Origin: a virus
IMG/VR virus record: IMGVR_UViG_3300020185_000086
Location: 1-44,915 of that record
Direction: 5' to 3' (one strand)
Length of the DNA stretch: 44,915 nucleotides
Positions 1 to 44,915 of this stretch are shown one piece after another. The position numbers and the translations under genes are program-made. Position 1 is the stretch's first letter; every line of letters starts with the position of its first letter. The notes below the pieces were generated by a model. That model was not told the origin of the DNA. It searched no databases and was given only the letters and a program-made list of their open reading frames with translations.

Positions 1-1
1 G

Positions 2-592
2 GGAGCTGGTCTAGGATTAGGTATAGCTGGGATGGGCTTAGATTATGCTAGAAGCACTATGGATGACCAAGAAAGTAGAGGTGCTAAGGCTTTAGGTGTT
101 GGTTCTTCTGCATTGACGGGCGCAGCATTTGGTATGATGTTAGGGCCTGTTGGTGCTTTAGTTGGTGGTTTAGCTGGAGCTGCTTATGGTGCTTTTAAGG
201 AATATGGTGGGGGCGATGGTTTTGAAGAAACAGATAATACTACTGCTGATATGAGTTCATTATATAGTAAAACTAGTGAAGTTAACGATGCTATTATAAA
301 GTTTAACCCAAGAGATAAGTTCACAACAGTTAACGATGCGATTATAGCTTCAACAAGTCAGAATCAATTAAATACTGCCACTAAAAAACTTACTGGAGGT
401 GATAGTAATAGTGAAACTAAAGTTAAGATTGATGATGTTAAGGCTGATTTTAACTTTAACTTTAACGGTATTGATAATGAAATAGGTAAAATGTTATTAG
501 CTAATAACCAATGGGTAAATAAATTAAATACAGTACTACATGAAGTTAGTAGGACTTCTTTATCATATAAAATAAGTCCACAACCTATATAA
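2..592 (+). CDS. Probable tail tape-measure protein, C-terminal fragment (5' end outside window)
   Basis: The reading frame is open from base 2, before the first ATG at 32, so this is the 3' part of a longer gene. The visible part starts with a Gly/Ala-rich hydrophobic stretch (about residues 30-65, with LGPVGALVGGLAGAAYG) of the kind found in tape-measure proteins. A motif with 'VNDAIIKFNPRDKF' and a second 'VNDAII' copy follows. I recall this motif from the C-terminal region of tail proteins in Bacteroidota phages, but I cannot check it here. The last 60 residues are polar. A tape-measure protein sets tail length inside the tube and leaves first during ejection. The baseplate genes directly downstream fit that role. 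It could instead be another long tail protein. The stop codon lies in the left arm of a perfect 13-bp inverted repeat. Confidence 0.5.
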   Translation, partial: GAGLGLGIAGMGLDYARSTMDDQESRGAKALGVGSSALTGAAFGMMLGPVGALVGGLAGAAYGAFKEYGGGDGFEETDNTTADMSSLYSKTSEVNDAIIKFNPRDKFTTVNDAIIASTSQNQLNTATKKLTGGDSNSETKVKIDDVKADFNFNFNGIDNEIGKMLLANNQWVNKLNTVLHEVSRTSLSYKISPQPI

Positions 593-622
593 TTTATTAT
601 TATTTAAAAAATAAATTATATA
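586..622 (+). terminator. A/T-only 13-bp perfect hairpin straddling the tape-measure stop codon
   Basis: TATATAATTTATT at 586-598 is the exact reverse complement of AATAAATTATATA at 610-622, with an 11-nt loop. The stop codon (590-592) is in the left arm. No good T-tract follows, so it may be a weak terminator, an mRNA 3'-end stabiliser, or simply AT-rich symmetry. The promoter at 626 begins three bases after it. Confidence 0.4.
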
Positions 623-625
623 AAT

Positions 626-657
626 CTTGACTTTATAATTTTAAAATAGTATTTTTG
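626..657 (+). promoter_or_regulatory. Bacteroidota-type promoter upstream of the first baseplate block
   Basis: CTTG at 626-629, a 20-bp spacer, then TATTTTTG at 650-657 match the Bacteroidota primary-sigma consensus (-33 TTG/TTTG, -7 TAnnTTTG). Transcription would start near 663 and give a leader of about 220 nt ahead of the ATG at 888. The match in sequence and spacing is seen directly; activity is inferred. Confidence 0.6.
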
Positions 658-687
658 ACTTATATATATAAACAGAGGATTGAAAGT

Positions 688-790
688 ATATTATATATTA
701 TATATTATATAATAAATATAAATATAATATCTATATAATAGATAAATATAATAGATAAATATAATATATAGATATTATATATAGTAATTT
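688..790. repeat. AT-only repeat region with a 16-bp inverted repeat and 13-bp tandem units
   Basis: This stretch is almost entirely A and T. ATATAATATCTATATA at 722-737 is the perfect inverse of TATATAGATATTATAT at 765-780. Between the arms the 13-mer ATAATAGATAAAT occurs at 735-747 and 748-760, with a decayed third copy starting at 761. The region lies in the non-coding leader 593-887, where I see no ORF worth calling. It could form a long hairpin in the transcript, be a DNA-unwinding element, or be neutral low-complexity sequence. Confidence 0.6.
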
Positions 791-860
791 TAGTAATTTA
801 CTTAATATTCCCCTAATTCCAAGACTACAAGTATTTATTTTATTATAATTTTGATTAGCA

Positions 861-870
861 TAGTATTTAT
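861..870 (+). promoter_or_regulatory. TAGTATTTAT motif, candidate phage late promoter
   Basis: TAGTATTTAT starts 27 bp before the ATG at 888. The identical decamer occurs before the genes at 33015 and 43701, and one-base variants occur before 22561 and 41926. No TTG lies at the -33 distance, so it would act as a -10-only element like T4 late promoters. Function is inferred from recurrence and position only. Confidence 0.35.
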
Positions 871-887
871 ATATAAAAAGAGTTACT

Positions 888-3800
888 ATGCCAAATTCTA
901 TAAATTCGTTATCACCAGATTTAAGAGATTATTTACTAAATAGAAATATTATTAGTGATACTATAACTTCTAGTGGTTTAGGTACTCTTCTTCAAGGTAT
1001 TGGTATACCTTCAGAAATTAGCCATTCCCCAGAATCTGTACAACCATCAGAGAATATTGAGGTTGATGGTGTATTCTATAAAGATTTAAATGTAATCATA
1101 AATAAATACCAAGGTTCTGATGATGATTATGAAAAAGTAAGTATAAATTATTTACCAGGTAACACTAACTCAACATGGGCTGGTATTCCTTTTAATCATG
1201 AGTCATATAAACCTGGTGTAGCACAGTTATTCGATTATACAGAGACTAATGTTCCAGCTAATGGACCATTCCAAGGTGGGAACATTAGAGAATTTAATAC
1301 AACTAAGAACAATTTTTTAGATGTAAGTAAACAAACTAAGATAGATTTTAATACTCAACCTGTTCCATCGTATCAAATTGGTTCTTATTTAGATGAATAT
1401 GGAGCACTTAATGTAGGTGGTGCTGATACTCAACCATTAGATGTTCTTGGTAGTCTTTTAACTGGTGGTGGTGTAGGTTTTGACCCTAATGGGGGTGGAG
1501 TTGTTCCAGATTTTGATGTTAGGTCTTCATTAGTTGGTAGAGCTCTTAACGCTGGTGGTGCAATCAATGATACAAAATTAGGTACATTAGCTGTTAAGTA
1601 TTTAGCAGCATCAATTGGTAATAGTGTCGCAATGAATCTTCAAGAGGAAACAATTGGTAGAATAAACCTTAATCCATTAAGTCTTTTAAAAGGAAATAAT
1701 ATTATAGTTCCAAATTATAATATTACGGTAGCTAAAGGTACACTAGGTAAGATTTTAGATTTAGGTGAAAGAATGCTTGGTTTTGAAACGCCAGTTAGTC
1801 TTTTAGGACCAGGCTCATCAATATTTAGTAAAGAAAACCCAGTAGGAAATATTGAGAGAGCTCAATCAATGATTTTAAATACTGGTAAAGGGCAAGTATT
1901 AGCTCTTATAGCTAGTCTTGACCAAAACTTATATAAACCACAAATATCAGATGATAGAAAGAAAGAAGGAACAGCACCAACTGGTGAAGATGGTACAAAC
2001 GGTACTCTTTATGCTTTTAACAATGGTGATGGTGGTGTAATTGACTTATTAAATAGTCCAGGTGTAGAAGGAGTTACCCCAGCATTTTTACCAAATGGAT
2101 TACCAGACCCTAATTTTATAGCTCAAGTTTCTAACGCTGGTGCTTTCGAATCTGAACATGGTAAGATAACAAGTGAATTAAATAGTGGATTTAATGATGA
2201 ATTTGGTGATTTAACGCATGCTAATTCAAGAAATGATAGTGAAGCTAAATTTATGTGGGCTGATAAAGGAAGTAATAAAACTAACTCTGAAGGTGCTAGT
2301 ACGGGTCTTAAATCATTTGAAGATTTAGGTGTTAAGAAAAGTTTACTAAGTAAAACAAAAGAATTATTTAATAGTAATAAAATGAGAACACTTACCTCTG
2401 GTCATTATGTTAAAGATGAGAAAATTAGTGAAATTCAAAGTGGTATGCATACCAAATTTATTGCTAATGGTAAACTATCAAAAGGTAGTGGTGTATTATC
2501 TAAAGGGGTATTAGACGGTACTGCAACTGATGGTGATAAAATATTTTGTAGAACATGGTCAACATATGATAAATACGCTAGTGTTAATGATTTAGTAAGA
2601 CATAGTGGTTTAAAAAAGAATTTAATGATAAATCCACACGCTAATGTTGATGCATCTGTTTTAGATAAACAAGGATTTCCTCAAATAGGACCATATAATG
2701 ATAGAGTTAATACATCAGTAGATGCTAACGGTAAAAAAGTAAACGTTGAGAATTATATGTTCTCAATTGAAAACTTAGCTTGGTATGGTTCAGATATGAT
2801 GAGCTTTTTACCAGATTGTGAAATAGGTCCTGGTGACCCAGTAACAGGTCGTAATGGTAGAATAATGTGGTTCCCACCATATGACATTTCATTTAATGAA
2901 ACAACATCAGTTAGTTTAGAAAGAAATAATTTTATAGGTAGAGGTGAGCCAATATATACATATAATAATACTGAAAGAATGGGAACACTTTCATGGAAGA
3001 TTATTATTGACCACCCTAATTATATGAATTTTTTCCCAGAAAATTGGGGTGATAATGAAATAGCTTCATTTTATGCTGGATGTTTAGAAGACGAAAAAAT
3101 AGTAAAAAAAGTATTTACTAGTAATGAAAGAAATGAAATTGAATTAGCCGAGAAACCAATTGTTAAAGAAGTTGTAGATGAAGCTGAACCTGGAGAACTC
3201 ACATTTATTGTATATTTTAAAAATGATACGACAGATATATCTACATTATATGAAAATGGTAAAAGAAATAATGCTCCAGACGGAGACCCAAATGGTTACA
3301 TTGAAGATACCGATATAATGGGTTGTTATAAATCAAAACTTAATGATGAAGGAACTGCTTTAGAATGTATTGCTGGATATGGTTTAGGTACAACAATAGG
3401 TGAAGGTATTGTTGGTTCAAAAGGTAAAGTATATAATGATTTAACTAATTTTGGTCTTAATGGTCAAGACCAACCAATATCATTTAAAGGTAAAACTCAC
3501 AGAGGTTGGATGGATGATGATTTTCTCCCAAACTTAAGTGACTATATTTCTAATGAATGTAAATATTGTAAAATAACAATTGAAGGTTATGCTAGTTCCC
3601 AAGGCGCTTCATCTAAGAATCAAAAACTTTCACAAAAAAGAGCTGATAATGTTAAATCTTGGTTAATTAGTAATGTAGTACCTAAAAATGATACTGTTAG
3701 TCCTGAAAAAAGAGTTGTAATTTCAGAACCAACTGGTAAAGGTGAAACTGAAACTGGATGTACTGGTGAAGGTGGTCAAGATAGAGGAGCTTGTAAATTA

Positions 3801-5102: not shown

Positions 5103-5113
5103 AAAAATAGATT

Positions 5114-15051: not shown

Positions 15052-16152
15052 ATGGCAAAAACACCTAAAAAACCAATTAGTAAAAAGACATTCGATTTAA
15101 GTTCTTTTAAAAAGAAGAACGGGATGGATATAACAGTAAAAGACAAAGATTTAACTTGGATACCTTTATCAGATTCATTTCATGAAGCACTTAAGATTCC
15201 TGGATTAGCTAGAGGTTATTTCACTAGTTTTAGAGGTTACTCAAACACAGGAAAGTCAACCGCAATATATGAAGCGGCTGCTGGAGCTCAAAAGATTGGC
15301 GATTTGCCAGTTATAATTGAAACAGAAACAAACTGGTCATGGGAACACGCTAGAAATATTGGGTTACAATTCGAAGAAGTAGTTGACCCAGAAACTGGAG
15401 AGGTTATAGATTACGAAGGAGATTTTATTTTTCTTAGTGGTGATGACCTTTTAAGTAGATATGAGTGTGTAGATTATTCAAATGGTAAAGAAGGAACAAA
15501 GGTTTTAAGAAGTGAACCGATAATTGAAGACGTTGCAAGACTTATAACGGAATTACTTGACCAGCAAGCAGAAGGAGAATTAGATAGAAATTTATGTTTT
15601 CTTTGGGATTCAGTAGGTTCCTTAAATGGATTCCAATCAGTAATGTCTAAATCCAATAATAACCAATGGAATGCTGGTTCAATGGAAACGGCATTTAAAT
15701 CACTAGTTAATCATAGAATACCAGCATCTAGGAGAATGGGTAAACCATTTATTAATACTTTTGCTGTTGTTCAAAAGATTTGGTTAGATAATATGAATAC
15801 AGTTATCAAGCACAAAGGTGGAGAAGCATTCTTCTATTCACCAAGAGTTATTGTTCACTTCGGTGGTATATTAACTCACTCAACTGTTAAGTTGAAAGCA
15901 ACGTCTGGTGGTGAGACATACCAATTTGGTATTGAAACTAAAGTTAGATGTGAAAAGAATCAAGTTAACGGTGTTGAAGAACATGGTAAGTTAGCATCAA
16001 CTCCACATGGCTATTGGAATCCAGCAAAGATTGATGATTATAAAAAGAAACATAAGGATTATATCCTTGAAAGACTTAATACTAATATTGATGATTTCAT
16101 AATTGAAAGAGAAGTCGTAGAAGATTTAAGTCTTGACGATTCGAAAGCGTAG
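15052..16152 (+). CDS. uvsX: UvsX/RecA-type recombinase
   Basis: This 366-aa ATPase pairs homologous DNA and drives recombination-dependent replication. The Walker A motif is GYSNTGKST at residues 62-70 and the Walker B strand is LCFLWDSVG with D186. The segment after Walker A (PVIIETETNWSWEHARNIG) has the UvsX-type catalytic Glu region, and the region around FAVVQKIWLDNM, then VRCEKNQVNG, fits the RecA core. The length is slightly below T4 UvsX (about 390 aa). It lies between its usual partners, the ssDNA-binding protein upstream and the 5' nuclease downstream. I do not see a recognisable UvsY. Confidence 0.85.
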   Translation: MAKTPKKPISKKTFDLSSFKKKNGMDITVKDKDLTWIPLSDSFHEALKIPGLARGYFTSFRGYSNTGKSTAIYEAAAGAQKIGDLPVIIETETNWSWEHARNIGLQFEEVVDPETGEVIDYEGDFIFLSGDDLLSRYECVDYSNGKEGTKVLRSEPIIEDVARLITELLDQQAEGELDRNLCFLWDSVGSLNGFQSVMSKSNNNQWNAGSMETAFKSLVNHRIPASRRMGKPFINTFAVVQKIWLDNMNTVIKHKGGEAFFYSPRVIVHFGGILTHSTVKLKATSGGETYQFGIETKVRCEKNQVNGVEEHGKLASTPHGYWNPAKIDDYKKKHKDYILERLNTNIDDFIIEREVVEDLSLDDSKA

Positions 16153-17836: not shown

Positions 17837-19261
17837 ATGGGTAAAATTAGTAAAGATAGTTTAGGGTATTTAGGGTTAGATTTTCAGTATCGACTTATAC
17901 AACAAATGTTAGTTGACCGAAAGTTCGGTGAGTCAATAATGGATATTCTAAAACCTAATTACTTTGAAGATAGTTTCTTAAGGACTACTTCAGCGAAAAT
18001 AAAAGATAATTACGATAAATATGAGTCGATTCCAGATGTAAATAATCTAGAATCTACAATATTAGGTGCTGTATCTGACGATATTGATAAACAAATGTAT
18101 TTAGAACAGTTCAATAGAATAAAAAATGCTGAATTGAACAATGGATTGCAAATCCAAGATACAGCAATGAAATTTTGTAAACAACAAGAATTAAAAAAAT
18201 CAGTTAGAGACATTCAACAAATCATAGATAAAGGAGATTTAGAAGATTATCATATGTGTGAAGAAATCCTTAAAAAAGCCCTAGAAGTTGGTAATACAAA
18301 GGATGATGGTATTGATGTATTTCATGATATCGAGAATGTAATGTCTGAAGATTTCAGAAGCCCAATTCCTACTGGAATTAATGGGTTAGATGCCTATATG
18401 GATGGTGGTCTATCTAAGGGTGAGTTAGCTGTTATCTTAGCTCCTTTTGGGGTTGGTAAGACAACTATCATGACTAAGATAGGTAACAACGCTAAGAATG
18501 TAGGAAATAACGTCTTACAGATATTTTTCGAAGACAACCCAAAGGTAATCCAAAGAAAACATTTAACATGTTGGATGGATGGTAAATATTCACTTAATGA
18601 GTTATCTGAAAATAATGTAGAAATTCTTGCTAACGCCACAATTAAACAATCGCAACCAGGTAAGATTCAATTAAAGAAGTTTCCTAGTGATGGAACTACA
18701 ATACCAATGATAAAACAATATATAAAGAAATTAATATCTCAAGGTTTTAGACCAGATATAGTTTTATTAGATTATATTGATTGTGTAGTACCAACTAAAA
18801 CATTCAAAGATGAATATGCTGGTGAAGGAAATGTAATGAGACAATTCGAAACAATGCTTGATGAGTTAGATATTGCTGGTTGGACTGCCGTACAAGGTAA
18901 TAGAAGTTCTATTAACGCTGAAACAGTTGATGCAAGTATGATTGGTGGTTCTATTAAGAAAGGTCAAATTGGACACTTTATACTTTCAATAGCTAAATCA
19001 TTAGACCAAAAAGAAAATGGTCGTGCTAATATGGCAATTCTTAAATCTAGATTTGGTAAAGATGGGATTGTATTCGAAGATATAGTATTTGATAACGGCA
19101 CTTTAGTTATTGACATTACCGAGAATGAACAAAGAGGTAAAACATTCTTACAAGCTGAAGAAGTTAAGGTTGAGAGAAATCAAAACAGAGTTACTGAAGT
19201 TTTTGATGCAATGCAAAAAAAGAAAGATGAAGATTATCAAAGCGGTATAACTAATAATTAA
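17837..19261 (+). CDS. 41: DnaB/gp41-type replicative helicase
   Basis: This 474-aa ATPase should unwind DNA ahead of the fork as a hexamer on the lagging strand. The N-terminal 150 residues are helical. The RecA-like motor follows: the Walker A motif APFGVGKTT with K208, the catalytic Glu region VLQIFFEDNP, Walker B RPDIVLLDYIDCV, and the DnaB-specific segment QGNRSSINAETVD, then MIGGSIKKGQIGHFILSIAKS and MAILKSRFGKDG. The length agrees with T4 gp41 (about 475 aa). No primase is visible next to it. A GTATATTTAT element lies 30 bp before the ATG (17807-17816), but as the gap to the upstream gene is only 29 bp, the gene may simply be read from the upstream promoter. Confidence 0.85.
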   Translation: MGKISKDSLGYLGLDFQYRLIQQMLVDRKFGESIMDILKPNYFEDSFLRTTSAKIKDNYDKYESIPDVNNLESTILGAVSDDIDKQMYLEQFNRIKNAELNNGLQIQDTAMKFCKQQELKKSVRDIQQIIDKGDLEDYHMCEEILKKALEVGNTKDDGIDVFHDIENVMSEDFRSPIPTGINGLDAYMDGGLSKGELAVILAPFGVGKTTIMTKIGNNAKNVGNNVLQIFFEDNPKVIQRKHLTCWMDGKYSLNELSENNVEILANATIKQSQPGKIQLKKFPSDGTTIPMIKQYIKKLISQGFRPDIVLLDYIDCVVPTKTFKDEYAGEGNVMRQFETMLDELDIAGWTAVQGNRSSINAETVDASMIGGSIKKGQIGHFILSIAKSLDQKENGRANMAILKSRFGKDGIVFEDIVFDNGTLVIDITENEQRGKTFLQAEEVKVERNQNRVTEVFDAMQKKKDEDYQSGITNN

Positions 19262-20262: not shown

Positions 20263-22431
20263 ATGAAAATTATAAAAAGAGACGGAAGTAAACAATCTTT
20301 CATGCCAAATAAAATACTCGTTAGGTTAAGGCAACAATCTAAAGATTTAAATGTTAAACCCGATAAGTTATTTCAGAAAGTTATACCACATATAAAGGAT
20401 GGAATGACAGCTACTGATATAGATGAAATAATTGCATTTCAATCAGCTGATTTACAAATCGAACATCCAGATTACGCTATATTAGGTGGTAGAATTCTTA
20501 TATCTAGACAAGCTAAGATATTAGAAGTTGAAACTAAAGAAGTTGATGAGAAGTTTGATTCATTTGCCGCATCTACATTTTTAAAGAAATATTCTGAAAA
20601 GGATGATAAAGGGGTTCCAATTGAGATTCCATCTATGATGCATAACAGAGTAGCAAATCATCTTTACCCAGATTCATTTAAAGATAGAAGAAAACTTTTA
20701 AATGAACTATATGAAAAGAAAATTAATTTTGCTACACCGATATTAAGTAATTCTGGTATTGAGGGTAGAAACGGTCTTATTAGTTGTAATCTAACAACTC
20801 TTATGGATGATAGTATTGAAGGTATTAATGAGACACTAGATAAAATCTCACATGGTTCAAAAGAAGGTTCTGGAATAGGACTTTGTATTGATAGATTAAG
20901 AAGTTCTAGTAGTTTAGTTAGTAGCTTCAAAGGTTACGCTGGTGGTGTTATTAGATTTGCTGATATGGTACAGTCTCACATGAGATTTTATAAGCAAGGT
21001 AATAGGTCTGGTAGTTGTGCTTTATATTTATCTACTTGGCATAAGGATATATTATCATTTTTAGAATTAAGACTCCCAATTGGTGAAGAATTAAATAGAG
21101 CTAGGGATTTATTTACAGCTGTAACTATTGATGATGTATTTATGGATGCTTTAACAAATGAAACACCGTATTACTTATTTTGTCCTAACGATTTAAAGAA
21201 AGCTGGATTAAAACCATTATATGAGATACATGGTGAAGAATTTAAAGATGTTTACAATGAAGCTATTGAATTAGGTTTAGGTGATAAAGTTGAACCTAAG
21301 AAAATATGGGATGCCATTATACGTTCACAAGTTGAAAGTGGTACACCATATGTATTCTATAAGGATAACGCAAATAAGGTTAATATGCAAGATAATATCG
21401 GTATAATTAACCAGTCTAATTTATGTATAGAAATTATGCAAGCTAGTAAACCAACATACACACCACAATGTACTTTAGCTTCAGTTAATTTATCCGAACA
21501 TGAGACATTAAAGAGTATTGGTAAATCAACTAAGGTTTTAGTTAGAGCTCTAAACAAAGTTATTGATAATAATAAATGGTCTGACGATTGGAGTAAAAAT
21601 GCTGGGGTAGACCAAAGAGCTATTGCTATTGGTGTTGCTGGGTTAGCTGATTTCTTTGCTAAGAAGAAGATATCTTTTGAAAGTGATGAAGCGAAGAAAT
21701 GGAATGAAGACATTTTTGAAATAATGTATAAATCTGCACTTGAAGAAAGTAGTTTATTAGCTATTGAAGAAGATGAAAATTATCCAGCTTGGGAAGGTAG
21801 TAAATATAGTAGAGGTGAGACTTATATAGAAGGATGGTCACCAGTAGAACCTGGAGAACCAATTCCAATGCGTAACTCATTATTAATAGCTTTAATGCCT
21901 ACAGCTTCAAGCGCAATCTTATTAGGTGCTTTTGAATGTTTCGAACCAGTAACTTCTAACGTATTTACTAGGATGGTTGGTGATGGTGAGTTTATTGTCG
22001 TAAACAAATATCTAGTAAGAGAATTAGTTGAGTTAGATTTATGGAATGAAGAGATACGTGATGCTATTATTTCTAACGAAGGTAGTATTCAAGACATACA
22101 AATAATACCAGAAGATATTAGATATCGTTATAAAACTGTTTGGGAAGTACCTCAAAAAGTATTATTAGAATTAGCTATAATTAGAAATAAATTTGTAGAC
22201 CAATCACAAAGCATGAATGTATATCATAGAGATGCTAAATATAGTAAAATATCTAGTGCTTTAGTATTTGCTTGGAAGAATGGTTTAAAAACTGGTTCTT
22301 ATTATACCAGAACTGAATCTAAGTTAGGTAAAAACAAAAAATTATCCGCATCTGATAATATATCAGCTAATCTAGTTAAAAAGCCAGAGAACTCAATGTT
22401 TAGTTGTGAAGGTGGTGGTTGCGATGCTTAG
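20263..22431 (+). CDS. nrdA: Class I ribonucleotide reductase large subunit (NrdA/R1)
   Basis: This 722-aa catalytic subunit reduces ribonucleoside diphosphates. An ATP-cone is present at residues about 1-90 (KIIKRDGSKQSF, then YAILGGRILISR), so allosteric control by ATP/dATP is possible. The catalytic residues are all in place: C175 (NGLISCNL), N386, C388 and E390 (SNLCIEI), C403 (TPQCTLA), the radical-transfer pair Y680-Y681 (GSYYTR), and the redox-active C-terminal pair C715/C720 (CEGGGC). No glutaredoxin or thioredoxin gene is in the window, so the reductant must come from elsewhere in the phage or from the host. The gene ends at a strong terminator that closes the replication block. Confidence 0.95.
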   Translation: MKIIKRDGSKQSFMPNKILVRLRQQSKDLNVKPDKLFQKVIPHIKDGMTATDIDEIIAFQSADLQIEHPDYAILGGRILISRQAKILEVETKEVDEKFDSFAASTFLKKYSEKDDKGVPIEIPSMMHNRVANHLYPDSFKDRRKLLNELYEKKINFATPILSNSGIEGRNGLISCNLTTLMDDSIEGINETLDKISHGSKEGSGIGLCIDRLRSSSSLVSSFKGYAGGVIRFADMVQSHMRFYKQGNRSGSCALYLSTWHKDILSFLELRLPIGEELNRARDLFTAVTIDDVFMDALTNETPYYLFCPNDLKKAGLKPLYEIHGEEFKDVYNEAIELGLGDKVEPKKIWDAIIRSQVESGTPYVFYKDNANKVNMQDNIGIINQSNLCIEIMQASKPTYTPQCTLASVNLSEHETLKSIGKSTKVLVRALNKVIDNNKWSDDWSKNAGVDQRAIAIGVAGLADFFAKKKISFESDEAKKWNEDIFEIMYKSALEESSLLAIEEDENYPAWEGSKYSRGETYIEGWSPVEPGEPIPMRNSLLIALMPTASSAILLGAFECFEPVTSNVFTRMVGDGEFIVVNKYLVRELVELDLWNEEIRDAIISNEGSIQDIQIIPEDIRYRYKTVWEVPQKVLLELAIIRNKFVDQSQSMNVYHRDAKYSKISSALVFAWKNGLKTGSYYTRTESKLGKNKKLSASDNISANLVKKPENSMFSCEGGGCDA

Positions 22432-22960: not shown

Positions 22961-24778
22961 ATGGCACAAAAAATAAATTACTATTCTAGGAACTTTGCAG
23001 ATGTAAGGTCAGAATTAATTAATTACGTAAGAGAATATTATCCAGATATTTTTAACGATTTTAATGATGCCTCTGTTGGTATGATGCTTTTAGAACTTAA
23101 CGCTGCCGTTGGGGATATGCTTTCGTTTCAAACGGACAGAATGTTCCAAGAAACTCAAATTGATTTCGCACAAGAAAGAAGCTCCATCTTATCAATGGCT
23201 AGAACATTCGGACTTAAAATACCAGGTAAAAGACCTTCTGTTACGTTATGTGATTTTTCAGTTGTTGTACCAGTGTTTGGTGATACTTTTAATATTCTAT
23301 ACGCACCAATTATTAGAAGAGGAGCACAAGTTAGTGGTTCAGGGAAAGTATTTGAAGCTTTAGATGAAATTGATTTTTCATCACCATTTAATAATAGTGG
23401 AGTCCCAAATCAATTAGTAGTTCCAAATTTAGATTCTAATGGTACAATAATTAATTATACCCTAACTAAAAGGGAATTAGTTACTAACGGTACAACAAAA
23501 ATAATGAAAAGAATTACTAATAGTAGTGATGTTAGACCATTCTTAGAAGTATTACTCCCAGAAGATAATGTATTATCGATTAACTCAATAATCATGCTTG
23601 AGGGTACTAATTATTCAACAAATCCACCTACTGGTCAATTCTATAACGAAAACTTAAGGTGGTTTGAAGTTAATGCATTAGCTGATGACATTGTTTTTAT
23701 TAAAGATAATACCATAATTAGTGACGATTCAGCAGTAAGTCCAGGTAAATTTAAAAAAATAAATCAAAGGTTTATCAGAGAATATACAGATAAAGGGTTT
23801 ACTAAAATTATATTTGGTGGAGGTTCCCAAGATATAAGTGAGTTATGCGAATTTGACGTTAATAAATCACTTGTTAATCGAGTAGGTGATTTTATCAATA
23901 ACCTTTCATTAGGTATTACACCATCAGCCAATCAAACAATGTTTATTTCTTATAGAATTGGTGGTGGAGCTTCAACTAATATTGGTCCCAATGTAATTAA
24001 AACAGTTTCAACTGTTGACATGGTGGTTAATGGTCCTAATAACTTAGTAAATCAAAAAGTAATTAATTCTCTTTCAGTTAATAATCCAATACCAGCATTA
24101 GGCGGTAAAGATGAACCCTCTATTGAAGAATTAAGAAATCTTGTTAGATATAATTTTGCATCACAAGAAAGGTGTGTAACGATTGAAGATTATAAAGTTA
24201 GAATAGGACTTATGCCAGGTGAATTTGGTATTCCATTTAGAAATAATGTAATGGAGATTCAAAATAAGATTAAAATTTTCACACTTACACTTGATGAGAA
24301 TGGTCAACTAAGTACTAATACAACTACAACACTTAAAGATAATATAACAACATATTTATCTGACTACAGAATGCTTAATGATTATGTTGAAGTATCTAAC
24401 GGAAAAGTGTATAATTTAGGTTTTGAAGTAGATTTATTTACTGATTCACAGTTTTCAAAATCAGAAATTATGACACAAGTCATTACAACAATTACAAGTT
24501 ATTTTGATATTAATAAATGGGGTATGGGTGAAAATATATACATGGCCCAATTAATTGAATTAGTTAATAATGTACCAGGTGTATTAAATGTAACTGACTT
24601 AAGAATTTATAATAAGGTTGGTCAAGGTAAGTATTCATCTAATGAAATACCACAACCATATATCGATGAAGCAACAAGACAAATTGACTTATTAAGTGAC
24701 TATACACTTTTCGGTGACCCAGTAGGTATGTTTGAGATTAAGTTTCCAGATACAGATATTAAAGTAAGGGTGAAGTAA
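22961..24778 (+). CDS. 6: gp6-like baseplate wedge protein (Baseplate J family)
   Basis: This 605-aa protein is the core wedge subunit whose dimers form the baseplate's inner ring and drive its shape change. The N-terminal signature is clear (FADVRSELINYVREYYPDIF, then DASVGMMLLELNAAVGDMLSF, then QERSSILSMARTFG). The middle is beta-rich (about 90-330), and the C-terminal J-like region includes EELRNLVRYNFASQERCVT and TIEDYKVRIGLMPGEFG (about 390-425). The length is close to T4 gp6 (660 aa). It is preceded by gp25. Its stop codon lies in the loop of a small hairpin (24770-24785). Confidence 0.88.
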   Translation: MAQKINYYSRNFADVRSELINYVREYYPDIFNDFNDASVGMMLLELNAAVGDMLSFQTDRMFQETQIDFAQERSSILSMARTFGLKIPGKRPSVTLCDFSVVVPVFGDTFNILYAPIIRRGAQVSGSGKVFEALDEIDFSSPFNNSGVPNQLVVPNLDSNGTIINYTLTKRELVTNGTTKIMKRITNSSDVRPFLEVLLPEDNVLSINSIIMLEGTNYSTNPPTGQFYNENLRWFEVNALADDIVFIKDNTIISDDSAVSPGKFKKINQRFIREYTDKGFTKIIFGGGSQDISELCEFDVNKSLVNRVGDFINNLSLGITPSANQTMFISYRIGGGASTNIGPNVIKTVSTVDMVVNGPNNLVNQKVINSLSVNNPIPALGGKDEPSIEELRNLVRYNFASQERCVTIEDYKVRIGLMPGEFGIPFRNNVMEIQNKIKIFTLTLDENGQLSTNTTTTLKDNITTYLSDYRMLNDYVEVSNGKVYNLGFEVDLFTDSQFSKSEIMTQVITTITSYFDINKWGMGENIYMAQLIELVNNVPGVLNVTDLRIYNKVGQGKYSSNEIPQPYIDEATRQIDLLSDYTLFGDPVGMFEIKFPDTDIKVRVK

Positions 24779-25212: not shown

Positions 25213-28200
25213 ATGTCTGATAACATTAGAATAAGAACTACACCTGGTGATGGAATTAAGAGTGTAAATATTAATATAAATCAAAAATTTGATTTTATTG
25301 AGATTCTTTCACTTAAGATTTCGCAAGATGAAGCTTATAGAAGTTTTTGTTCTGATTATGGTGCAGTAGTAGGTAGAGTTATTGTTAATAACGGTGTAGG
25401 AGTACCAAACGCAAAGGTATCTATTTTCATACCTATTGATGATAACGATGCTATTGACCCAGAAATTCTTGGGTTATACCCATTTGAAGTAGTTACTGGA
25501 AAAGACTACAACGGAATAGGTTACAACTTATTACCAAGGAACGCAAGAGGTAAAGGTGATTGTTTTACACCTATCGGAACATTTCCATCAAAAAGAGAAA
25601 TACAAGATAACCCAGAAGTTAGTTATATATATTGTAAGTATTATAAATATTCGACAACAACAAATAACTCTGGTGATTTCATGTTATTTGGTGTTCCAGT
25701 AGGACCAAACTTTTTACATTGTGATGTTGATTTATCTGATATAGGCATACTTTCACAAAAACCTTATGAATTAATTAATGATGGTGCTAGTGAAAATTCA
25801 TTTGCATCTCCAACCGAGTTTAGAAGTCGTGATGAAACTGTAAATTTAAACCAATTAAAAACAATATCACCTATAAGTGTTGATGTAGTACCATTTTGGG
25901 GTGATAAAGAACAATGCCAAGTTGGAATTAGTAGGGTTGATGTTGACTTAAAAACACAAATTATATCTACCGCAATATTTATGGGTTCTATTTTTAGCGA
26001 TACTGAGAATGCCAGTATTAACAAGAGATGTAGACCTAAAAAAGCAATGGGTAATCAAGCTAAATTAGTTGCTGGCCCAGGTACAATTGAAATGATTCGT
26101 AAAAGTTCTACGGGTCAAATATCAAGATATGATATAAATGGAGGTCAAAATATTGACGATGACGGGACATGGAGTTATTTAATACCAATGAACTTAGATT
26201 ATAAGGTTACTTCTGAAGATGGTACAATGATACCATCAGATGACCCAACAATAGGTATTGCAACTAGAGCGAATGTTAGATTTAGAATTTCAATGGGTAG
26301 TAATGGTGCAGAAGGAAAACTAAGAAGTAGAGCAAAATATCTTGTACCTAATAACCCAGAACATCAAAATGATGTTGATTATAATTTTGATGGAAGTACT
26401 AAACCAGAAAGTTTTGTTGATTTTTATTGGAATAAAATTTATACAGTTAAGAATTATATAGCCAGAGTCCAACCAAATAAATCTGTTGAAAATAGAAACT
26501 TTATAGGTATAAAGGATGTAGATGAAGGAGCGAACTCTCCGTTCCCATTTAATAGAATGGATAATTCAGTAAACCCAATTATTGGGCTTTTGTGTCTTAT
26601 ATTTAGTATATTTTCGTTGATAATATGTGCAATTAATACTGTGATAGTAAATCTTCTTAATGTAGTTATTCTAATACTTAATGTAGTATTAGGGATTATT
26701 TGTGTTGTTTTAGCTGCTATTACTGTTCTAGTTTGTGGTTTAGCTCATTTATTTTCGGAAGCTAAACGAAAATCATGTAGGTGTAGATTGTGTCTTGGAC
26801 AACCCTGTACTAATGGTGATTGTTTTGGTGCCTGTTTAGATGGTATTCTACCCTATATACCATATATATCAGTAAGTTGCCCAGGTGACCCAGATGGGAT
26901 GAATTACGCACCTTGTGGTTGGAAACTTCCTGGTTCTTGGCAAGCTACGGAAGACCTTTCCCAACAAAATAATGGAACTAGCTTTCATTATCCAGGTGAT
27001 GGCCACCCTGGTCATAATAACTCTACGGCTGGATGGATAGATTGTATGATGCTTGGACTCATGGAAGCCTGGAACGCATTCAAGTTTGATTTTTATAATG
27101 ATTGGGTTAATGGTACACTATACTCCTTCTTATTTAAAGTTAAAAAAAGGAAGAAAGGTAAAGGTAAAATGAGATTCTGTGACACTGATTGTGAAGACAA
27201 TATTTTAGGTGTTGATAATAATGAAGATGGTCAAGCAGATACGACATGTCGTAAAAATTACGTTCTTGATTCTTGTACTAAAGCACAACCAGACTCTTAT
27301 ACTGATAGTAGTGGAGATAAAAAAGGGGTTAATACTAAAACATATTATCAACTTAGAGAAGGATATATAAAGTTATATAAGGGTGAATTTTATTATTCGG
27401 CCATTTCTAAAAAAACTGGCGTGAGACTTTTTGCTACAGATATAGTTAATCTTGGTTCAATGGTTGATTGTGATTGGCAAGGAATACCTAAGTTTCAACA
27501 ATATCTTATAGATACAACCCACAATAAACCACCATTACTTGCTGAGTATGATGGAGATGTAGTACCAACCGACCCAGCAAATATCGATGTGACTGGTTAT
27601 GATACTAAATTACCTGGTGGAACTGGTGATAATAAGTTAATTGGAAATGTATGGTGTATAATTATGAATGCATCTATAGGGACAACACCACAAACATGTA
27701 TTAATGTGAGAAGGTTTTCAGAACTAGGTGTTGGTTTAGATGAAAATAGAAGTGAGGATATTCCTGGTGATTACGTTGATAATAAAATTACAAATAATGA
27801 TGTTGATAATGCATTTGTTAGAGGTGCATTTCTTAATGCCAACACCCCCACCTCAACAAGTATACCTTTAGTTTATTTCGATGGTATGACACCACCAGCT
27901 AATTACCCTACTAATAATTTTGGTTATGATGATGAGATAAATTATTCAGAATTCAGAGACCGAAAAATTGTAAAAAATTTAAAAGAACATGAAAATTCAT
28001 TTTACTTTTATTTTGGTCTTAAACCTGGAAAAACTGCTTTAACAAAAATGAATAATCAATACTTTACGGAATGTATTCCATTTGATGATAGGGATTTCTT
28101 TATTAGTGGTACCATTGATACACCAGATAATGAAGACCCTCTAGGTCAAGGTCAATTAACTATTGAAATGATTAATGGTAAGCCACCATTCCAGATTGAA

Positions 28201-29520
28201 TGGGTAGGTCCAACAATTAGTGGAACCCTATATACAAACTCCCAATCTGGATATAATTCTATTACACAAACATTAAGTAATCTTTATGTTGGTAGTTATA
28301 ATGTAACGGTGGTAGATGATTTAGGTAATACAGCTCAGGGGGTGTTTTATGTTCCAGGTCCAGAACCTACAACATGTAATATACAACCAACACCAGCATC
28401 TGCTAATGGTGTTTCTGATGGAACAATAAGTGTAAATATAAGTGGTGGTCAAATTCCGTTCACGATAAATATATATGAATCTGACCCAGCTATACCAGGT
28501 GGTTTTGTTACAACTCCAACTGATACAGCTTCAATCACCTCAACTTCACATGTATTTAGTAATTTACCAGGTGATAATTATTATGTTGAGGTGATTGATT
28601 CTGGAACGCCAATAACAGAATGTACTAATGATGTAGAAATAACAGAACCAAATGCTTTAATTGTAAGTATTAGTGGTAGTTCATCACCATGTTACGGTGA
28701 GAATGCTGGTACTGCGACTTCATCAGTAAACGGTGGTACTACACCATATACAATAGAATGGATAGATTCAAATAATAATAATGTTAGTAGTAATTTTACT
28801 GCTAGTAATTTAGGACCAGGCACTTATACTGCCTCAGTTACTGACTCTAGTAATCAAACTGGTGGAGGAACTTGGGTTGTAACCGAACCAGGAGACTTGA
28901 CGTTTACTACTGGTTCTGATGATGTCACCTGTTTTAATCAAAATGATGGTATAATAGGTATTAGTTCCGTATTTTCAGATAATACTGTTGAAATTACTGT
29001 TGAGGGTGGTGGTACTAACACTTACCAGGCAATGTCACCTGGTACTGGTAGCGACCACCTTTTTTATAATTTAGTTGCTGACACTTACCAAATTAAACTT
29101 AGAGATATTATAACTGAATGTGAAAAGATAACTTCTATAGTAATTAATGAACCAACATCTGAACTAACAGTTAGTATTATAGAGACAGTTAACTCATTAA
29201 CCGCTACAATAGTTGGTGGTTGGGGAAATGAACCAGGTGGTGAATATATTACAGAATGGCAAGTAAGTAATACCCAATATGGAAGTTATAGCACACCAAA
29301 TCTATTAATGTTAGACCCCGCTGTTTATGCTTCCATAGCTGGGGAAGATGTACCCCCTTATAGTAATAAAGTAAATTTAAGTCCTACCGCTTACGTAGCA
29401 TTTTTGTATCCTAAATGGTGGAGACTTAAAGTAACTGCAAAAAATCAAACTCACGAGACTAATGAGGGATGTACTAAATATAGTAGTCCAGTTGAACTAG
29501 TTGGAGCTTATGTTCCATAA
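25213..29520 (+). CDS. Large virion protein with hydrophobic core segment and SprB-like adhesin repeats (1435 aa)
   Basis: This is a probable tail or baseplate appendage protein. The N-terminal region has a carboxypeptidase-regulatory-like beta domain (VVGRVIVNNGVGVPNAKVSI at about 52-70, closing with GDFMLFGVPVGPNFL near 156-170). At residues about 454-514 there is a 60-residue hydrophobic stretch (IIGLLCLIFSIFSLIICAIN and VVLGIICVVLAAITVLVCGL), directly followed by a Cys-rich patch (KSCRCRLCLGQPCTNGDC). The C-terminal 460 residues (about 977-1320) contain three to four SprB-type repeats: 'GGxxPYxIxW ... LxPGTYTxxVTDxxxxT ... VTEP', plus CYGENAG and CFNQNDG starts. SprB repeats are known from flavobacterial gliding adhesins. 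The start at 25213 is the only in-frame ATG near the 3'-end of the previous gene. Host contact is inferred. Confidence 0.6.
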   Translation: MSDNIRIRTTPGDGIKSVNININQKFDFIEILSLKISQDEAYRSFCSDYGAVVGRVIVNNGVGVPNAKVSIFIPIDDNDAIDPEILGLYPFEVVTGKDYNGIGYNLLPRNARGKGDCFTPIGTFPSKREIQDNPEVSYIYCKYYKYSTTTNNSGDFMLFGVPVGPNFLHCDVDLSDIGILSQKPYELINDGASENSFASPTEFRSRDETVNLNQLKTISPISVDVVPFWGDKEQCQVGISRVDVDLKTQIISTAIFMGSIFSDTENASINKRCRPKKAMGNQAKLVAGPGTIEMIRKSSTGQISRYDINGGQNIDDDGTWSYLIPMNLDYKVTSEDGTMIPSDDPTIGIATRANVRFRISMGSNGAEGKLRSRAKYLVPNNPEHQNDVDYNFDGSTKPESFVDFYWNKIYTVKNYIARVQPNKSVENRNFIGIKDVDEGANSPFPFNRMDNSVNPIIGLLCLIFSIFSLIICAINTVIVNLLNVVILILNVVLGIICVVLAAITVLVCGLAHLFSEAKRKSCRCRLCLGQPCTNGDCFGACLDGILPYIPYISVSCPGDPDGMNYAPCGWKLPGSWQATEDLSQQNNGTSFHYPGDGHPGHNNSTAGWIDCMMLGLMEAWNAFKFDFYNDWVNGTLYSFLFKVKKRKKGKGKMRFCDTDCEDNILGVDNNEDGQADTTCRKNYVLDSCTKAQPDSYTDSSGDKKGVNTKTYYQLREGYIKLYKGEFYYSAISKKTGVRLFATDIVNLGSMVDCDWQGIPKFQQYLIDTTHNKPPLLAEYDGDVVPTDPANIDVTGYDTKLPGGTGDNKLIGNVWCIIMNASIGTTPQTCINVRRFSELGVGLDENRSEDIPGDYVDNKITNNDVDNAFVRGAFLNANTPTSTSIPLVYFDGMTPPANYPTNNFGYDDEINYSEFRDRKIVKNLKEHENSFYFYFGLKPGKTALTKMNNQYFTECIPFDDRDFFISGTIDTPDNEDPLGQGQLTIEMINGKPPFQIEWVGPTISGTLYTNSQSGYNSITQTLSNLYVGSYNVTVVDDLGNTAQGVFYVPGPEPTTCNIQPTPASANGVSDGTISVNISGGQIPFTINIYESDPAIPGGFVTTPTDTASITSTSHVFSNLPGDNYYVEVIDSGTPITECTNDVEITEPNALIVSISGSSSPCYGENAGTATSSVNGGTTPYTIEWIDSNNNNVSSNFTASNLGPGTYTASVTDSSNQTGGGTWVVTEPGDLTFTTGSDDVTCFNQNDGIIGISSVFSDNTVEITVEGGGTNTYQAMSPGTGSDHLFYNLVADTYQIKLRDIITECEKITSIVINEPTSELTVSIIETVNSLTATIVGGWGNEPGGEYITEWQVSNTQYGSYSTPNLLMLDPAVYASIAGEDVPPYSNKVNLSPTAYVAFLYPKWWRLKVTAKNQTHETNEGCTKYSSPVELVGAYVP

Positions 29521-33926: not shown

Positions 33927-33929
33927 TAA

Positions 33930-41869: not shown

Positions 41870-41911
41870 TTAAACGAAAAAAAAATAAATAAAAATTAAA
41901 TAAAAATTGAA

Positions 41912-41921
41912 TACTATTTAT
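41912..41921 (+). promoter_or_regulatory. TACTATTTAT motif, candidate late promoter
   Basis: This is a one-base variant of TAGTATTTAT, ending 4 bp before the ATG at 41926. If it acts as a -10-type element, the mRNA would start at or next to the start codon. Role inferred. Confidence 0.3.
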
Positions 41922-41925
41922 ATAT

Positions 41926-42168
41926 ATGCCAATATTAATACAAAACATAACCGCAAGTTTATCAGATGACATCTCTAATGATGTTAGTGCTATTAAATTC
42001 ATTAAAGCTAATTTTGGGTATAAAGATTGGTTTAAGATTGGGTATTTAGAAGTTTTCTTACAAAACTATAAACAAGTAACCCAACTTACCGATTTAAATA
42101 AAATAAAAGACCTTGGGTTACTTGTAAATTATGGTAAACCATTCACTGAAATAAAGATATCATATTAA
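41926..42168 (+). CDS. Small virion-block protein, unknown (80 aa)
   Basis: This is a small soluble protein that reads MPILIQNITASLSDDISNDV, with a Lys/Phe/Tyr-rich middle (IKANFGYKDWFKIGYLEVFL). No domain is recognised. Its stop overlaps the next gene's ATG by 1 nt (TAATG), so the two are coupled; it may be a chaperone or a structural partner for the fibre-like protein at 42168. The start lies just downstream of a candidate late-promoter motif. Confidence 0.6.
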   Translation: MPILIQNITASLSDDISNDVSAIKFIKANFGYKDWFKIGYLEVFLQNYKQVTQLTDLNKIKDLGLLVNYGKPFTEIKISY

Positions 42169-43646
42169 TGAGTCACCAAGACCCAATATATAATCAAAAT
42201 GGTAACTGCGATAGAAATCAAACAGTACCAGTTGTAAACACTAGTTCTGACATCTGTGTGTTCACTATACCTTTCTTTACAATGAGTGGTGGAAGTAAAA
42301 TTAACTGTAGTGACCCTGGTCTTACAAGTGGCTCTACAAATGTTTACCCTCTTACTGGCCAAACCAACATTGATGTTGAATTTACTTTTACAGCTAACAC
42401 TTCAAATCTTAATAGTGATAGTATATTTAGGTTCGAAATATATAAATATAATAACACTATTGGTATATTTGAAGAACCGTACAGATACCAATCAAGTGGT
42501 TATACTTGGGATTCATTTAGTGGTACAAGTGCGTTTACAGCCACAATACCAGTTACTAATCTAAATGTAGATGGTGATTATTTAGTTAAAGGATATTACG
42601 TTCACGATGTTTGTACTGAATTTGGTGGTTTATTAGGTAATAAATTTAGTACTTCTTCATTTAAAACAGGTAATAATTACGGGCTTTACCAAGAAGATAG
42701 AGATTCATATTTTGTAGCATTTACTTCTGCTGACAAACCACTACTTAATATAGGTGATACTTTGCTTGAACCAGCTGGTACGTTACTTACAAATAGTATT
42801 CTATTAGATGGTACTGAGTTAACGTTTGTCTTACCAAGTTCAACTCTAGGTGGTAGTCACATGGTTGCATTAAATGGTTTAACACTTTCTGAAAATTATG
42901 ATTATAGTTTAACTTCTAAAGAGGTTACTACTATATTTACTGCCACATCAGAAACAGTAATACTTAAGTTAAGTGGCGAAACTTTTTCTGGTGATATACT
43001 CACATATGTTTATATCAACTCTACTACTGATTCAGCATTTAGGTATGATACTATCGACATAATTACTACTATCGCAAGTGGCTCTACTAACAGTCAAGGG
43101 TCGAATGACGTTTATTATAATACAACAGAAGGTAAATATGAAATTTACACTTCATTAATACCAGCCGAACTAAATAATATGGTGGTAACACTTAATGGTG
43201 CCACCCTAGCCAATAATATTGACTACTATCAGTCAATTACAAATCCAAAAAGAATTATTCTTGAAGGTGTTTTAGCTGTTGGTGATTTAATTACTATATA
43301 TTATGTAACAAGTGTTGCATTCCAAGGAAACATAACGACAACTAATATAAATTTTTCTTGGGGTATTACAAATCAACCACAAACAACAAATGGATTATTT
43401 ACTGTTGAAATTGCTTCTGATAATTTATTTACTACAATAGTTGGGACGGGTACAACAGAATATATAATTGGGGTAACTAATTATTCACTACAACTACCAA
43501 CTATTGGTGAAGTTGGTGATGTATTATATTATAGAATAAAGAATGATAAAAATTATGTAAATTTATGTGGTAGTATAATAAATACAACCGCATATAGTGA
43601 AATAATTGATATAAGAATACAAACAAATGCAACTAATTCATACTAA
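42168..43646 (+). CDS. Tail-fibre-like protein with LNG-type repeats (492 aa)
   Basis: Two copies of a tail-fibre repeat are visible at residues about 210-285 and 325-385: 'MVxLNGxxLxxNxDYxxx ... IxLxGxxxxGDxxTxxY' (seen as HMVALNGLTLSENYDYSL and NMVVTLNGATLANNIDYY, each followed by a GD and Y-containing strand). Repeats of this kind occur in many phage fibre and spike proteins. The C-terminal region has a fibronectin-like strand pattern (INFSWGITNQPQTTNGLFTV). The N-terminus carries three Cys residues in 40 residues. It probably helps in host recognition; the receptor is unknown. No intramolecular chaperone or tip domain is recognised. Confidence 0.6.
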   Translation: MSHQDPIYNQNGNCDRNQTVPVVNTSSDICVFTIPFFTMSGGSKINCSDPGLTSGSTNVYPLTGQTNIDVEFTFTANTSNLNSDSIFRFEIYKYNNTIGIFEEPYRYQSSGYTWDSFSGTSAFTATIPVTNLNVDGDYLVKGYYVHDVCTEFGGLLGNKFSTSSFKTGNNYGLYQEDRDSYFVAFTSADKPLLNIGDTLLEPAGTLLTNSILLDGTELTFVLPSSTLGGSHMVALNGLTLSENYDYSLTSKEVTTIFTATSETVILKLSGETFSGDILTYVYINSTTDSAFRYDTIDIITTIASGSTNSQGSNDVYYNTTEGKYEIYTSLIPAELNNMVVTLNGATLANNIDYYQSITNPKRIILEGVLAVGDLITIYYVTSVAFQGNITTTNINFSWGITNQPQTTNGLFTVEIASDNLFTTIVGTGTTEYIIGVTNYSLQLPTIGEVGDVLYYRIKNDKNYVNLCGSIINTTAYSEIIDIRIQTNATNSY

Positions 43647-43658
43647 TTATTTATTTTT

Positions 43659-43668
43659 TAGTATTTAT
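43659..43668 (+). promoter_or_regulatory. TAGTATTTAT motif, candidate late promoter
   Basis: This is the third exact copy of the decamer, in the 54-bp gap before the ATG at 43701. Weak inverted repeats (TACTAAT at 43641-43647 with ATTAGTA at 43667-43673) overlap it. Role inferred. Confidence 0.35.
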
Positions 43669-43700
43669 TAGTAATATAATAAGAAAAGATATTTTAAAAT

Positions 43701-44915
43701 ATGAGCTATTTAATTAACAGTACAGATGCTTTCGTTAATATTAAATTAACCCAAGCTGGAAGAGAAAAGTTAGCCCAAGGGCAATTAAACTTTACATCTT
43801 GGGGTATAGGTGATTCAGAAATCAACTATGATAGAGAAACCATACACAATAATAACATTACTGATGTAAGGTTGTCTGGTACTAGTAAAGTATTAAGGCC
43901 AGTAGATAATCAACCAGACATTAAGACTTTCATTACCGCTACAAGTAATGGTAATGTTAATTTAAACCCCCTTAATGCCTCTCAAATTACCACTATTAAA
44001 GCGATTGTAAATAATCAAGCTACTGAAAGAGGATTCTTTAGTGGTGATGGCACAACCTATATAACCTATACAGGTGATACTTATATTCAAGCTCAAGGTA
44101 CAGTTGTCGGTTCTTCAATTACTGGTGGAACGTCACTTGTAATTGGTACTGGTTATACATATAATAGCGGTGACTTTATTCTCCTTAAATTAGGTAATGA
44201 TACTATTGGTTCTTTAACTAACAACCAAAACACAATACCAGTACCTCAGTTATGGTATAAAATTAATTCAATAACAACGACTACCAACTTAAATGACACT
44301 ATAATAGTAGATAGAGATTTACCAAGTAATATTGCAACAACCGCAACAACACAATGGATTATTTACACTAGTGATGAAGTTTATGGTGGTTTTGGTTTTC
44401 AAGAAACAACACCTTATTGGAATACGAATACACTTGCTTTTGCTGGGTGTTGTGACATAACCTGTGGAGATGTTCCAGTTTGGAATATGAATAACGTGTG
44501 GTGTGAGAATATGGTAGGTATGAGCGGTACTGGTGTCAACAACATACCAGCAACTCCTTATCAAAGCTTCGAAAAATTTGGTTCTAACGCTTATTTAGGT
44601 CAAAAATATCCTTACTTTGATTATTCTTGTAATGAAGGTCTTATAACAGATATTGATATTTGTGGTAATCCAGGAGAATCAAGTCTTGATGGAACTAAGA
44701 AATCAATATCTATAATTCATTATACAAATAATACTATTTCTAATTTCTATGGAGAGTATTTCTTTATAGATGGAGCAAATAATAAAGAAGTTAGACTTAC
44801 ATTACCAGACCTTATGTATCATAGAAGAAACTATTCCACTGGAACAGGCACAACAATGGGTATGGATTTTATAGCTACGGGCACAACTAAACTTATAGGT
44901 ACGTCAGATATTCAG
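43701..44915 (+). CDS. Virion structural protein, N-terminal 405 residues (3' end outside window)
   Basis: The frame is open from the ATG at 43701 to the end of the window. It begins MSYLINSTDAFVNIKLTQAG, then REKLAQGQLNFTSWGIGDSE and INYDRE. I associate this 'LTxxGRxxLAxGxLNFxxWxIGDSEINY' type of N-terminus with conserved phage virion proteins near the baseplate, but I cannot check it. The middle is Thr/Asn/Gly-rich and beta-like; a Cys-rich stretch (AFAGCCDITCGDVPVW) is near residues 248-263. The start has an A-rich context and a candidate late promoter 33 bp upstream. The function and full length cannot be judged from this fragment. Confidence 0.7.
   Translation, partial: MSYLINSTDAFVNIKLTQAGREKLAQGQLNFTSWGIGDSEINYDRETIHNNNITDVRLSGTSKVLRPVDNQPDIKTFITATSNGNVNLNPLNASQITTIKAIVNNQATERGFFSGDGTTYITYTGDTYIQAQGTVVGSSITGGTSLVIGTGYTYNSGDFILLKLGNDTIGSLTNNQNTIPVPQLWYKINSITTTTNLNDTIIVDRDLPSNIATTATTQWIIYTSDEVYGGFGFQETTPYWNTNTLAFAGCCDITCGDVPVWNMNNVWCENMVGMSGTGVNNIPATPYQSFEKFGSNAYLGQKYPYFDYSCNEGLITDIDICGNPGESSLDGTKKSISIIHYTNNTISNFYGEYFFIDGANNKEVRLTLPDLMYHRRNYSTGTGTTMGMDFIATGTTKLIGTSDIQ

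What the first reader, a model, noticed from the sequence alone, without database searches (positions are those of the whole stretch)
1..44915. Complete absence of GATC in 45 kb
Reading every line, including across the spacing blocks, I found no GATC on this (palindromic) site. With about 30% GC, independent base frequencies predict on the order of 100 or more. The avoidance is visible at the codon level: Asp is mostly GAT here, but before codons that start with C it is always GAC (for example Asp-Pro at 2835, Asp-His at 3009, Asp-Gln at 3468), and many 'gat' codons occur next to non-C bases. Phages are known to lose target sites of restriction enzymes. This suggests long-term exposure to a GATC-specific system (MboI/Sau3AI/DpnII-like or methyl-directed DpnI-like) in the host range.
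Basis: partly seen in the sequence, partly recalled or inferred. Interest (0 to 1): 0.75.

Follow-up and report, generated by a model that had tools for sequence, protein, structure and literature searches.

The report
Phage family purged of GATC sites
This virus of bacteria, like nearly all of the relatives sampled here, has silently rid its genome of a few short DNA words that bacterial restriction enzymes commonly cut; the effect is a known one, but here it is unusually complete and shared across a group of large phages.

Summary
CCGG (0/16.1) and CGCG (0/7.8) are missing too. The window is about 99% identical to part of a 193,838-base phage contig that lacks all three. Among 123 non-redundant contigs of the same phage group, GATC is zero in 117, including records of 368,549 bases (0 of 1,113 expected) and 362,018 bases (0 of 867). 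The GATC-containing members are scattered tips of the tree; one of them lacks CTAG instead. In nine long records the near-absent tetramers are all palindromes (29 of 144 palindromic, 0 of 1,080 other cases). That is the mark of Type II restriction, most likely by the hosts (probably Bacteroidota; inferred). No GATC-type methylase or GATC nuclease family turned up in the phage records tested. A few non-palindromic words are also missing and are unexplained. Restriction-site avoidance is well known; what stands out is its completeness and its inheritance across a phage group. No host enzyme was identified.

The parts
1..44915 (.). Whole window (a virus record of exactly this length): no GATC, no CCGG, no CGCG on either strand (palindromes)
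2835..2840 (+).
3009..3014 (+). GACCAC, Asp-His written with GAC
3468..3473 (+). GACCAA, Asp-Gln written with GAC
15052..16152 (+). UvsX-like recombinase gene; places the window in a T4-like tailed phage
   Evidence: PHROGs E 2.1e-10
17837..19261 (+). DnaB-like replicative helicase gene
   Evidence: PHROGs E 3.7e-50
20263..22431 (+). Ribonucleotide reductase large subunit (nrdA): 0 GATC here, 4 to 8 per gene in four phage contigs with near-identical proteins; of those 23 sites 20 keep the same amino acids in the window
22961..24778 (+). Baseplate wedge gene used to define the phage group and build its tree
25213..29520 (+). Large structural-type protein with weak SprB-repeat matches (20.7 bits, below the curated cut-off of 28): a hint of a Bacteroidota host

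Best explanation
The window is part of a large T4-like phage (group members reach about 370 kb) whose whole group has lost GATC, and mostly CCGG and CGCG, because hosts in its range carry orthodox Type II restriction enzymes that cut these words. A site arising by mutation exposes the genome to cutting, so it is removed by synonymous change (for example GAT to GAC before C). Shown: the absence, its palindromic nature, its silent character, its inheritance and its sporadic loss. Inferred: that the cutting enzymes are host-encoded, that GATC and CCGG enzymes are common throughout the host range, and that the hosts are Bacteroidota.
For: Counts: G001 0/483 GATC, 0/66 CCGG, 0/36 CGCG; G052 (368,549 b) 0/1,113, 0/189, 0/120; G053 (362,018 b) 0/867 GATC, 0/140 CCGG, but CGCG 115/164. 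117 of 123 group loci have no GATC; CCGG zero in 52 of 55 loci with expectation of 5 or more. Near-absent tetramers in nine long (related) records: 29 of 144 palindromic, 0 of 1,080 non-palindromic; hexamers without the core words: 6 of 338 against 3 of 15,596; five-base words with a central N: 6 of 144 palindromic (all CGNCG), 0 of 1,080 others. The accessory set differs between records (GCGC, CGNCG, GCTAGC, TGGCCA, GACGTC, GTGCAC, CTGCAG), as different host ranges would give. GATC-containing members are scattered tips, at least 10 changes of state on the 158-row tree; L126 has GATC 77/84 but CTAG 0/22. Other phages show the same words: G012, which shares only four proteins with G001 in the comparison made, 0/235 GATC and 0/43 CCGG; isolated Tenacibaculum phages of two genera, pT24 0/719 and Larrie 1/153 GATC, with CCGG 0/81 and 0/50, whereas Cellulophaga phi19:2, in the same genus as Larrie, has 287/318 in the 50 kb read. 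Silent removal. Precedent.
Against: No host known and no cognate enzyme seen. It is odd for host pressure alone that GATC stays at zero over so much divergence (baseplate identity down to about 62%). Some words missing in part of the records are not palindromic: CCTGC, CCTGA, CCTCC (9 of 4,458 five-base cases) and GGATAC 2/91. One paper passage says that Polaribacter species have no known GATC restriction enzyme (PMC12570018). Flavobacterium phage immuto, a distant relative by baseplate with a Bacteroidota host, has normal GATC (506/577).
Confidence: 0.78

Rival explanations
1. The pressure comes from the phage itself: it encodes a nuclease cutting GATC (and perhaps CCGG) to destroy host DNA, and is immune because it has no sites.
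For: Would explain exact zeros kept through 117 of 123 loci. Nuclease-like core genes exist: a 103-aa GIY-YIG-type protein (G001:176947-177258, in G011, G020, G052, G053, G035, G010) and a RuvC-like one. Many genes have no assigned function.
Against: No MutH/Sau3AI (PF02976) or DpnII (PF04556) match in 32 phage records. Profiles of six conserved families gave no restriction enzyme among solved structures (best E 0.048, Csx28). 159 of 207 ORFs of G001 scanned by Pfam and PADLOC gave no clear Type II enzyme (the lists for the third set are cut at 25; one weak PADLOC Type IIG hit, E 0.0018). It would need several nucleases to explain the differing extra palindromes. G012, pT24 and Larrie show the same avoidance in other phages.
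Confidence: 0.08
2. GATC in particular is purged because hosts alternate between GATC-methylating strains and strains with methyl-directed DpnI-like enzymes, so no methylation state is safe; other words are lost to ordinary Type II enzymes.
For: GATC is the most consistently missing word (117 of 123) and can be hit in both methylation states. Rusinov et al. report GATC under-represented in all 46 phages whose hosts encode the methyl-directed type (PMC6286503, passage).
Against: CCGG is lost almost as regularly (52 of 55) and has no such dual pressure that I know of (recalled). Nothing here tells methyl-directed from ordinary enzymes.
Confidence: 0.12
3. Mutational or compositional bias, or an assembly artefact, gives the zero.
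For: The genomes are A+T-rich and C-containing words are rare.
Against: Markov and codon-shuffle controls; other tetramers of the same composition are normal; members of the same group with normal GATC exist; the records come from many separate metagenome contigs and from an isolate, pT24.
Confidence: 0.02

Closest known systems
Staphylococcus phage K lacking GATC (Sau3A) sites (PMC6532042, passage seen)
   Same: Large lytic phage genome (given there as 140 kb) with GATC eliminated, attributed to Sau3A restriction
   Different: One named word and a known host enzyme there; here several words together, records up to 368 kb, a whole group, host unknown
Haloviruses HF2, Hardycor2, Serpecor1 and Hardycor1 (PMC7911831, passages seen)
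   Same: Several palindromic tetramers completely absent together (GATC and CTAG in three of them), read as restriction avoidance; differences between viruses read as differing alternative hosts
   Different: Archaeal viruses; different set of words
General restriction-site avoidance in prokaryotic viruses (Rusinov et al., PMC6286503, abstract and passages seen)
   Same: Complete or nearly complete site loss in about one-tenth of viral genomes; orthodox Type II sites mainly
   Different: There matched to host enzymes; here host enzymes unknown and the trait is followed through one phage group
Tenacibaculum phage pT24 (LC168164, 234,670 b) and Microcystis phage Mel-JY01 (PP395634, 190,001 b)
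   Same: GATC 0/719 and 0/357; pT24 also CCGG 0/81
   Different: Not members of the group: pT24 found by nrdA at 35% identity, Mel-JY01 by baseplate at 27.6%; Mel-JY01 lacks CTAG (0/156) and has plenty of CCGG (948/796)

Membership tests
Type II restriction-site avoidance by a dsDNA phage | Specific short words far below expectation against Markov and codon-preserving controls | tested here: met
Type II restriction-site avoidance by a dsDNA phage | Avoided words are palindromes of the Type II kind rather than arbitrary words | tested here: met
   (29/144 against 0/1,080 tetramers; 6/338 against 3/15,596 hexamers); the non-palindromic CCTGC, CCTGA, CCTCC (9 cases) are an exception not explained
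Type II restriction-site avoidance by a dsDNA phage | Sites removed mainly by synonymous change | tested here: met
   (20 of 23 homologous sites keep the amino acids)
Type II restriction-site avoidance by a dsDNA phage | Host encodes the cognate restriction enzyme | not testable with these tools
   no host found:
Phage protecting itself with its own GATC methylase | Dam-type (D12) methyltransferase gene in the phage | tested here: not met
   PF02086: 0 of 17 and 0 of 32 records. Other methylase families: PF01555 1 of 40 (G037), PF00145 2 of 32 (G020 and Mel-JY01), specificities unknown
Phage-encoded GATC restriction nuclease | MutH/Sau3AI or DpnII family gene in the phage | tested here: not met
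   PF02976 and PF04556: 0 of 32 records each at E up to 1; unknown nuclease families are not excluded

The most novel reading that the evidence does not exclude
The GATC/CCGG taboo is intrinsic: this phage group carries its own site-specific nuclease, for instance the conserved 103-aa GIY-YIG-type protein, that shreds host DNA, and self-immunity is achieved by total loss of the sites instead of by a methylase.
Probability: 0.07. Interest if true: 0.8.

Novelty: new member of a known kind. Interest (0 to 1): 0.45.

Why it matters
It shows restriction-site avoidance as a stable inherited trait: GATC absent in 117 of 123 sampled members of a phage group, in records of up to 368 kb where over a thousand sites were expected, with several independent losses of the avoidance and one apparent swap to CTAG. 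Such a group is a natural experiment on how strong and how constant host restriction must be, and a phage's list of missing palindromes could be used to predict which restriction enzymes its unknown hosts carry.

Tried and rejected
First contrast seemed to show close relatives with and without GATC, but the contigs examined by gene content (G006, G007, G014) share with G001 mainly the ribonucleotide reductase genes plus a few scattered matches, so they are other phages; L009, L013 and L026 were not examined that way. I therefore used the baseplate gene.

An idea that exceptions avoid CATG instead (L148, CATG 1/10 in 4 kb) was dropped: its near-identical relative L340 has CATG 27/38. Avoidance of GATC by mutation bias was rejected by the controls.

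A Mom-like DNA-modification hit in G001 lies in a 536-aa protein that matches homing/HNH endonuclease families far better, so it is not taken as a modification gene. Six conserved families searched against solved structures gave nothing useful.

Host search: baseplate alignment and nrdA alignment in the bacterial genome collection found no confirmed relative. In papers (listings, with passages of nine papers) I saw no description of this phage group's missing words; the library holds only openly licensed papers, so this is weak evidence that it is unpublished. Passages in PMC8042965, PMC7440613 and PMC11267871 were irrelevant (company name or reference).

Rows dropped: redundant loci were removed by shared 300-base centres (139 to 98; 110 further loci gave 57 new, 155 in all, of which 32 form the sister clade). 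One of the 123, L020, has no baseplate gene on its piece. Each scan returned at most its best 80 loci, and two scans were aimed at GATC-containing members, so 117 of 123 is a sample, not a census.
Full report
Observation. The window has no GATC in 44,915 bases; 98.7 are expected from its trinucleotides and 105.6 ± 7.2 from shuffling synonymous codons within genes (200 shuffles, minimum 86). CCGG (0, expected 16.1) and CGCG (0, expected 7.8) are also absent; under codon shuffling CCGG is significant (0 against 18.6 ± 3.5) and CGCG is not (3.6 ± 2.0).

What it is. The window is a virus record of exactly this length with genes of a T4-like tailed phage: single-strand binding protein, UvsX-like recombinase, exonuclease, DnaB-like helicase, both ribonucleotide reductase subunits, amidase and baseplate wedge. 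It has no near match in the annotated phage collection for its first 25 kb (the rest was not searched that way). Three stretches covering nearly all of it match a 193,838-base record, G001, at 98.6 to 99.7% identity. G001 has 0 of 483 expected GATC, 0 of 66 CCGG and 0 of 36 CGCG.

The group. With the baseplate protein as probe I collected relatives and removed redundant pieces. Of 123 loci in the main group, 117 have no GATC; over all 123 there are 147 GATC against 4,437 expected. CCGG is zero in 52 of 55 loci where at least 5 are expected, CGCG in 18 of 29, GCGC in 6 of 47; GGCC, GTAC, CTAG, AGCT and TCGA are close to expectation overall, TGCA and ACGT slightly low, CATG at 0.70. A sister clade at 46 to 50% identity has zero GATC in 22 of 32 loci and lower CTAG and CATG. 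Long records confirm it: G011 187,484 b 0/389, G020 161,293 b 0/352, G035 136,575 b 0/311, G034 121,432 b 0/294, G041 121,116 b 0/290, G053 362,018 b 0/867, G052 368,549 b 0/1,113 with CCGG 0/189 and CGCG 0/120 in every 20-kb stretch. G004 (380,000 b read) is zero for its first 80 kb and then has 3 to 21 GATC per 20 kb; it holds Ns and looks composite, so only its first part was used.

Exceptions. Six of the 123 have GATC: L126 77/84, L340 26/42, L148 12/16, L362 22/50, L232 9/15, L113 1/22. On a tree of 158 rows (quick method, SH-aLRT support only) the zero label needs 11 changes and at least 10 on well-supported branches; in the main group the GATC-bearing rows sit at five separate places. 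The simplest reading is an ancestral taboo that was lost several times. L126 lacks CTAG (0/22) while keeping GATC, as a change of restriction pressure would give. These exceptions are short contigs, so their gene content cannot yet be compared.

Signature of the cause. In nine long, related records, every near-absent tetramer is a palindrome (29 of 144 palindromic cases, 0 of 1,080 others). Hexamers free of the core words: 6 of 338 palindromic, 3 of 15,596 others. Five-base words with a free centre: only CGNCG, 6 of 144 palindromic, 0 of 1,080 others. Against a purely palindromic rule, CCTGC, CCTGA and CCTCC are near-absent in some records (9 of 4,458 cases, beside 11 that are forms of CGNCG), and GGATAC is 2 of 91 in G052; asymmetric enzymes are a possible cause, not tested.

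Silent removal. The ribonucleotide reductase gene is shared at 76 to 78% nucleotide identity with four phage contigs that have normal GATC. Those copies carry 5, 4, 6 and 8 GATC; the window has none, and at 20 of these 23 sites the amino acids are unchanged, the words being mostly GACC, GTTC, GGTC or GATT.

Host or phage? For the host: other phages show overlapping sets. G012, which matched G001 in only four proteins, has 0/235 GATC, 0/43 CCGG and 1/16 CGCG. Two Tenacibaculum phages of different genera have 0/719 and 1/153 GATC, 0/81 and 0/50 CCGG, 1/42 and 3/52 GGCC, while a Cellulophaga phage of the same genus as one of them has 287/318 GATC in 50 kb. Against a phage cause: no MutH/Sau3AI or DpnII family gene in 32 records, no D12 methylase in 17 and 32 records; other methylases in 1 of 40 and 2 of 32. 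Pfam and PADLOC scans of 159 of the 207 predicted ORFs of G001 showed no clear Type II enzyme, with two of the lists cut at 25 families. Conserved small nucleases exist (GIY-YIG type, RuvC-like), so a phage-encoded cause is unlikely but not excluded.

Hosts. Weak SprB repeats in the window (below cut-off) and the nearest named phages (Tenacibaculum and Cellulophaga by nrdA; Flavobacterium and Microcystis by baseplate) suggest Bacteroidota; this is inference. Passages show a GATC restriction-modification pair in Prevotella intermedia (PMC5608340) and CCGG methylation in a Polaribacter genome bin, but also say that no Polaribacter GATC restriction enzyme is known (PMC12570018).

Verdict. A real and very strong case of a known phenomenon. 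Literature passages describe the same effect in phage K and haloviruses and in about one-tenth of viral genomes. What is uncommon is the number of words, the genome size and the near-constancy through a phage group.

Noticed in passing
L027 and L028 (G001:1-25000): About 25 kb of mostly minus-strand genes with glycosyltransferases, GDP-mannose dehydratase and four sulfotransferase matches among the 55 proteins scanned: a sugar-building cluster in a phage, little of it seen in the other records compared.
   Followed up: partly
   Followed up: partly
G010, G034, G041, G001, G011: Non-palindromic words CCTGC, CCTGA and (G034 only) CCTCC absent or nearly so while CCTGT and CCTGG are common.
   Followed up: no
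G014 (L093-L096): Several palindromic hexamers absent (GATATC 0/28, CATATG 0/24, GTATAC 0/13, CTATAG, ATCGAT, TGATCA) in a different phage sharing the ribonucleotide reductase genes.
   Followed up: no
G020:137699-139714: One 706-aa frame with repeated cytosine-C5 methylase matches, as in a fused or multi-specific methylase.
   Followed up: no
L271, PP395634 (Microcystis phage Mel-JY01): 190 kb isolate record with 0/357 GATC and 0/156 CTAG but CCGG 948/796.
   Followed up: partly
window:19280-22431: Ribonucleotide reductase genes 82-87% identical in protein to those of phages that otherwise share little: recent gene exchange.
   Followed up: partly
G004 beyond about 80 kb (L066-L080): Record looks composite: GATC-free first part joined to a part with different word use, with Ns.
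   Followed up: partly
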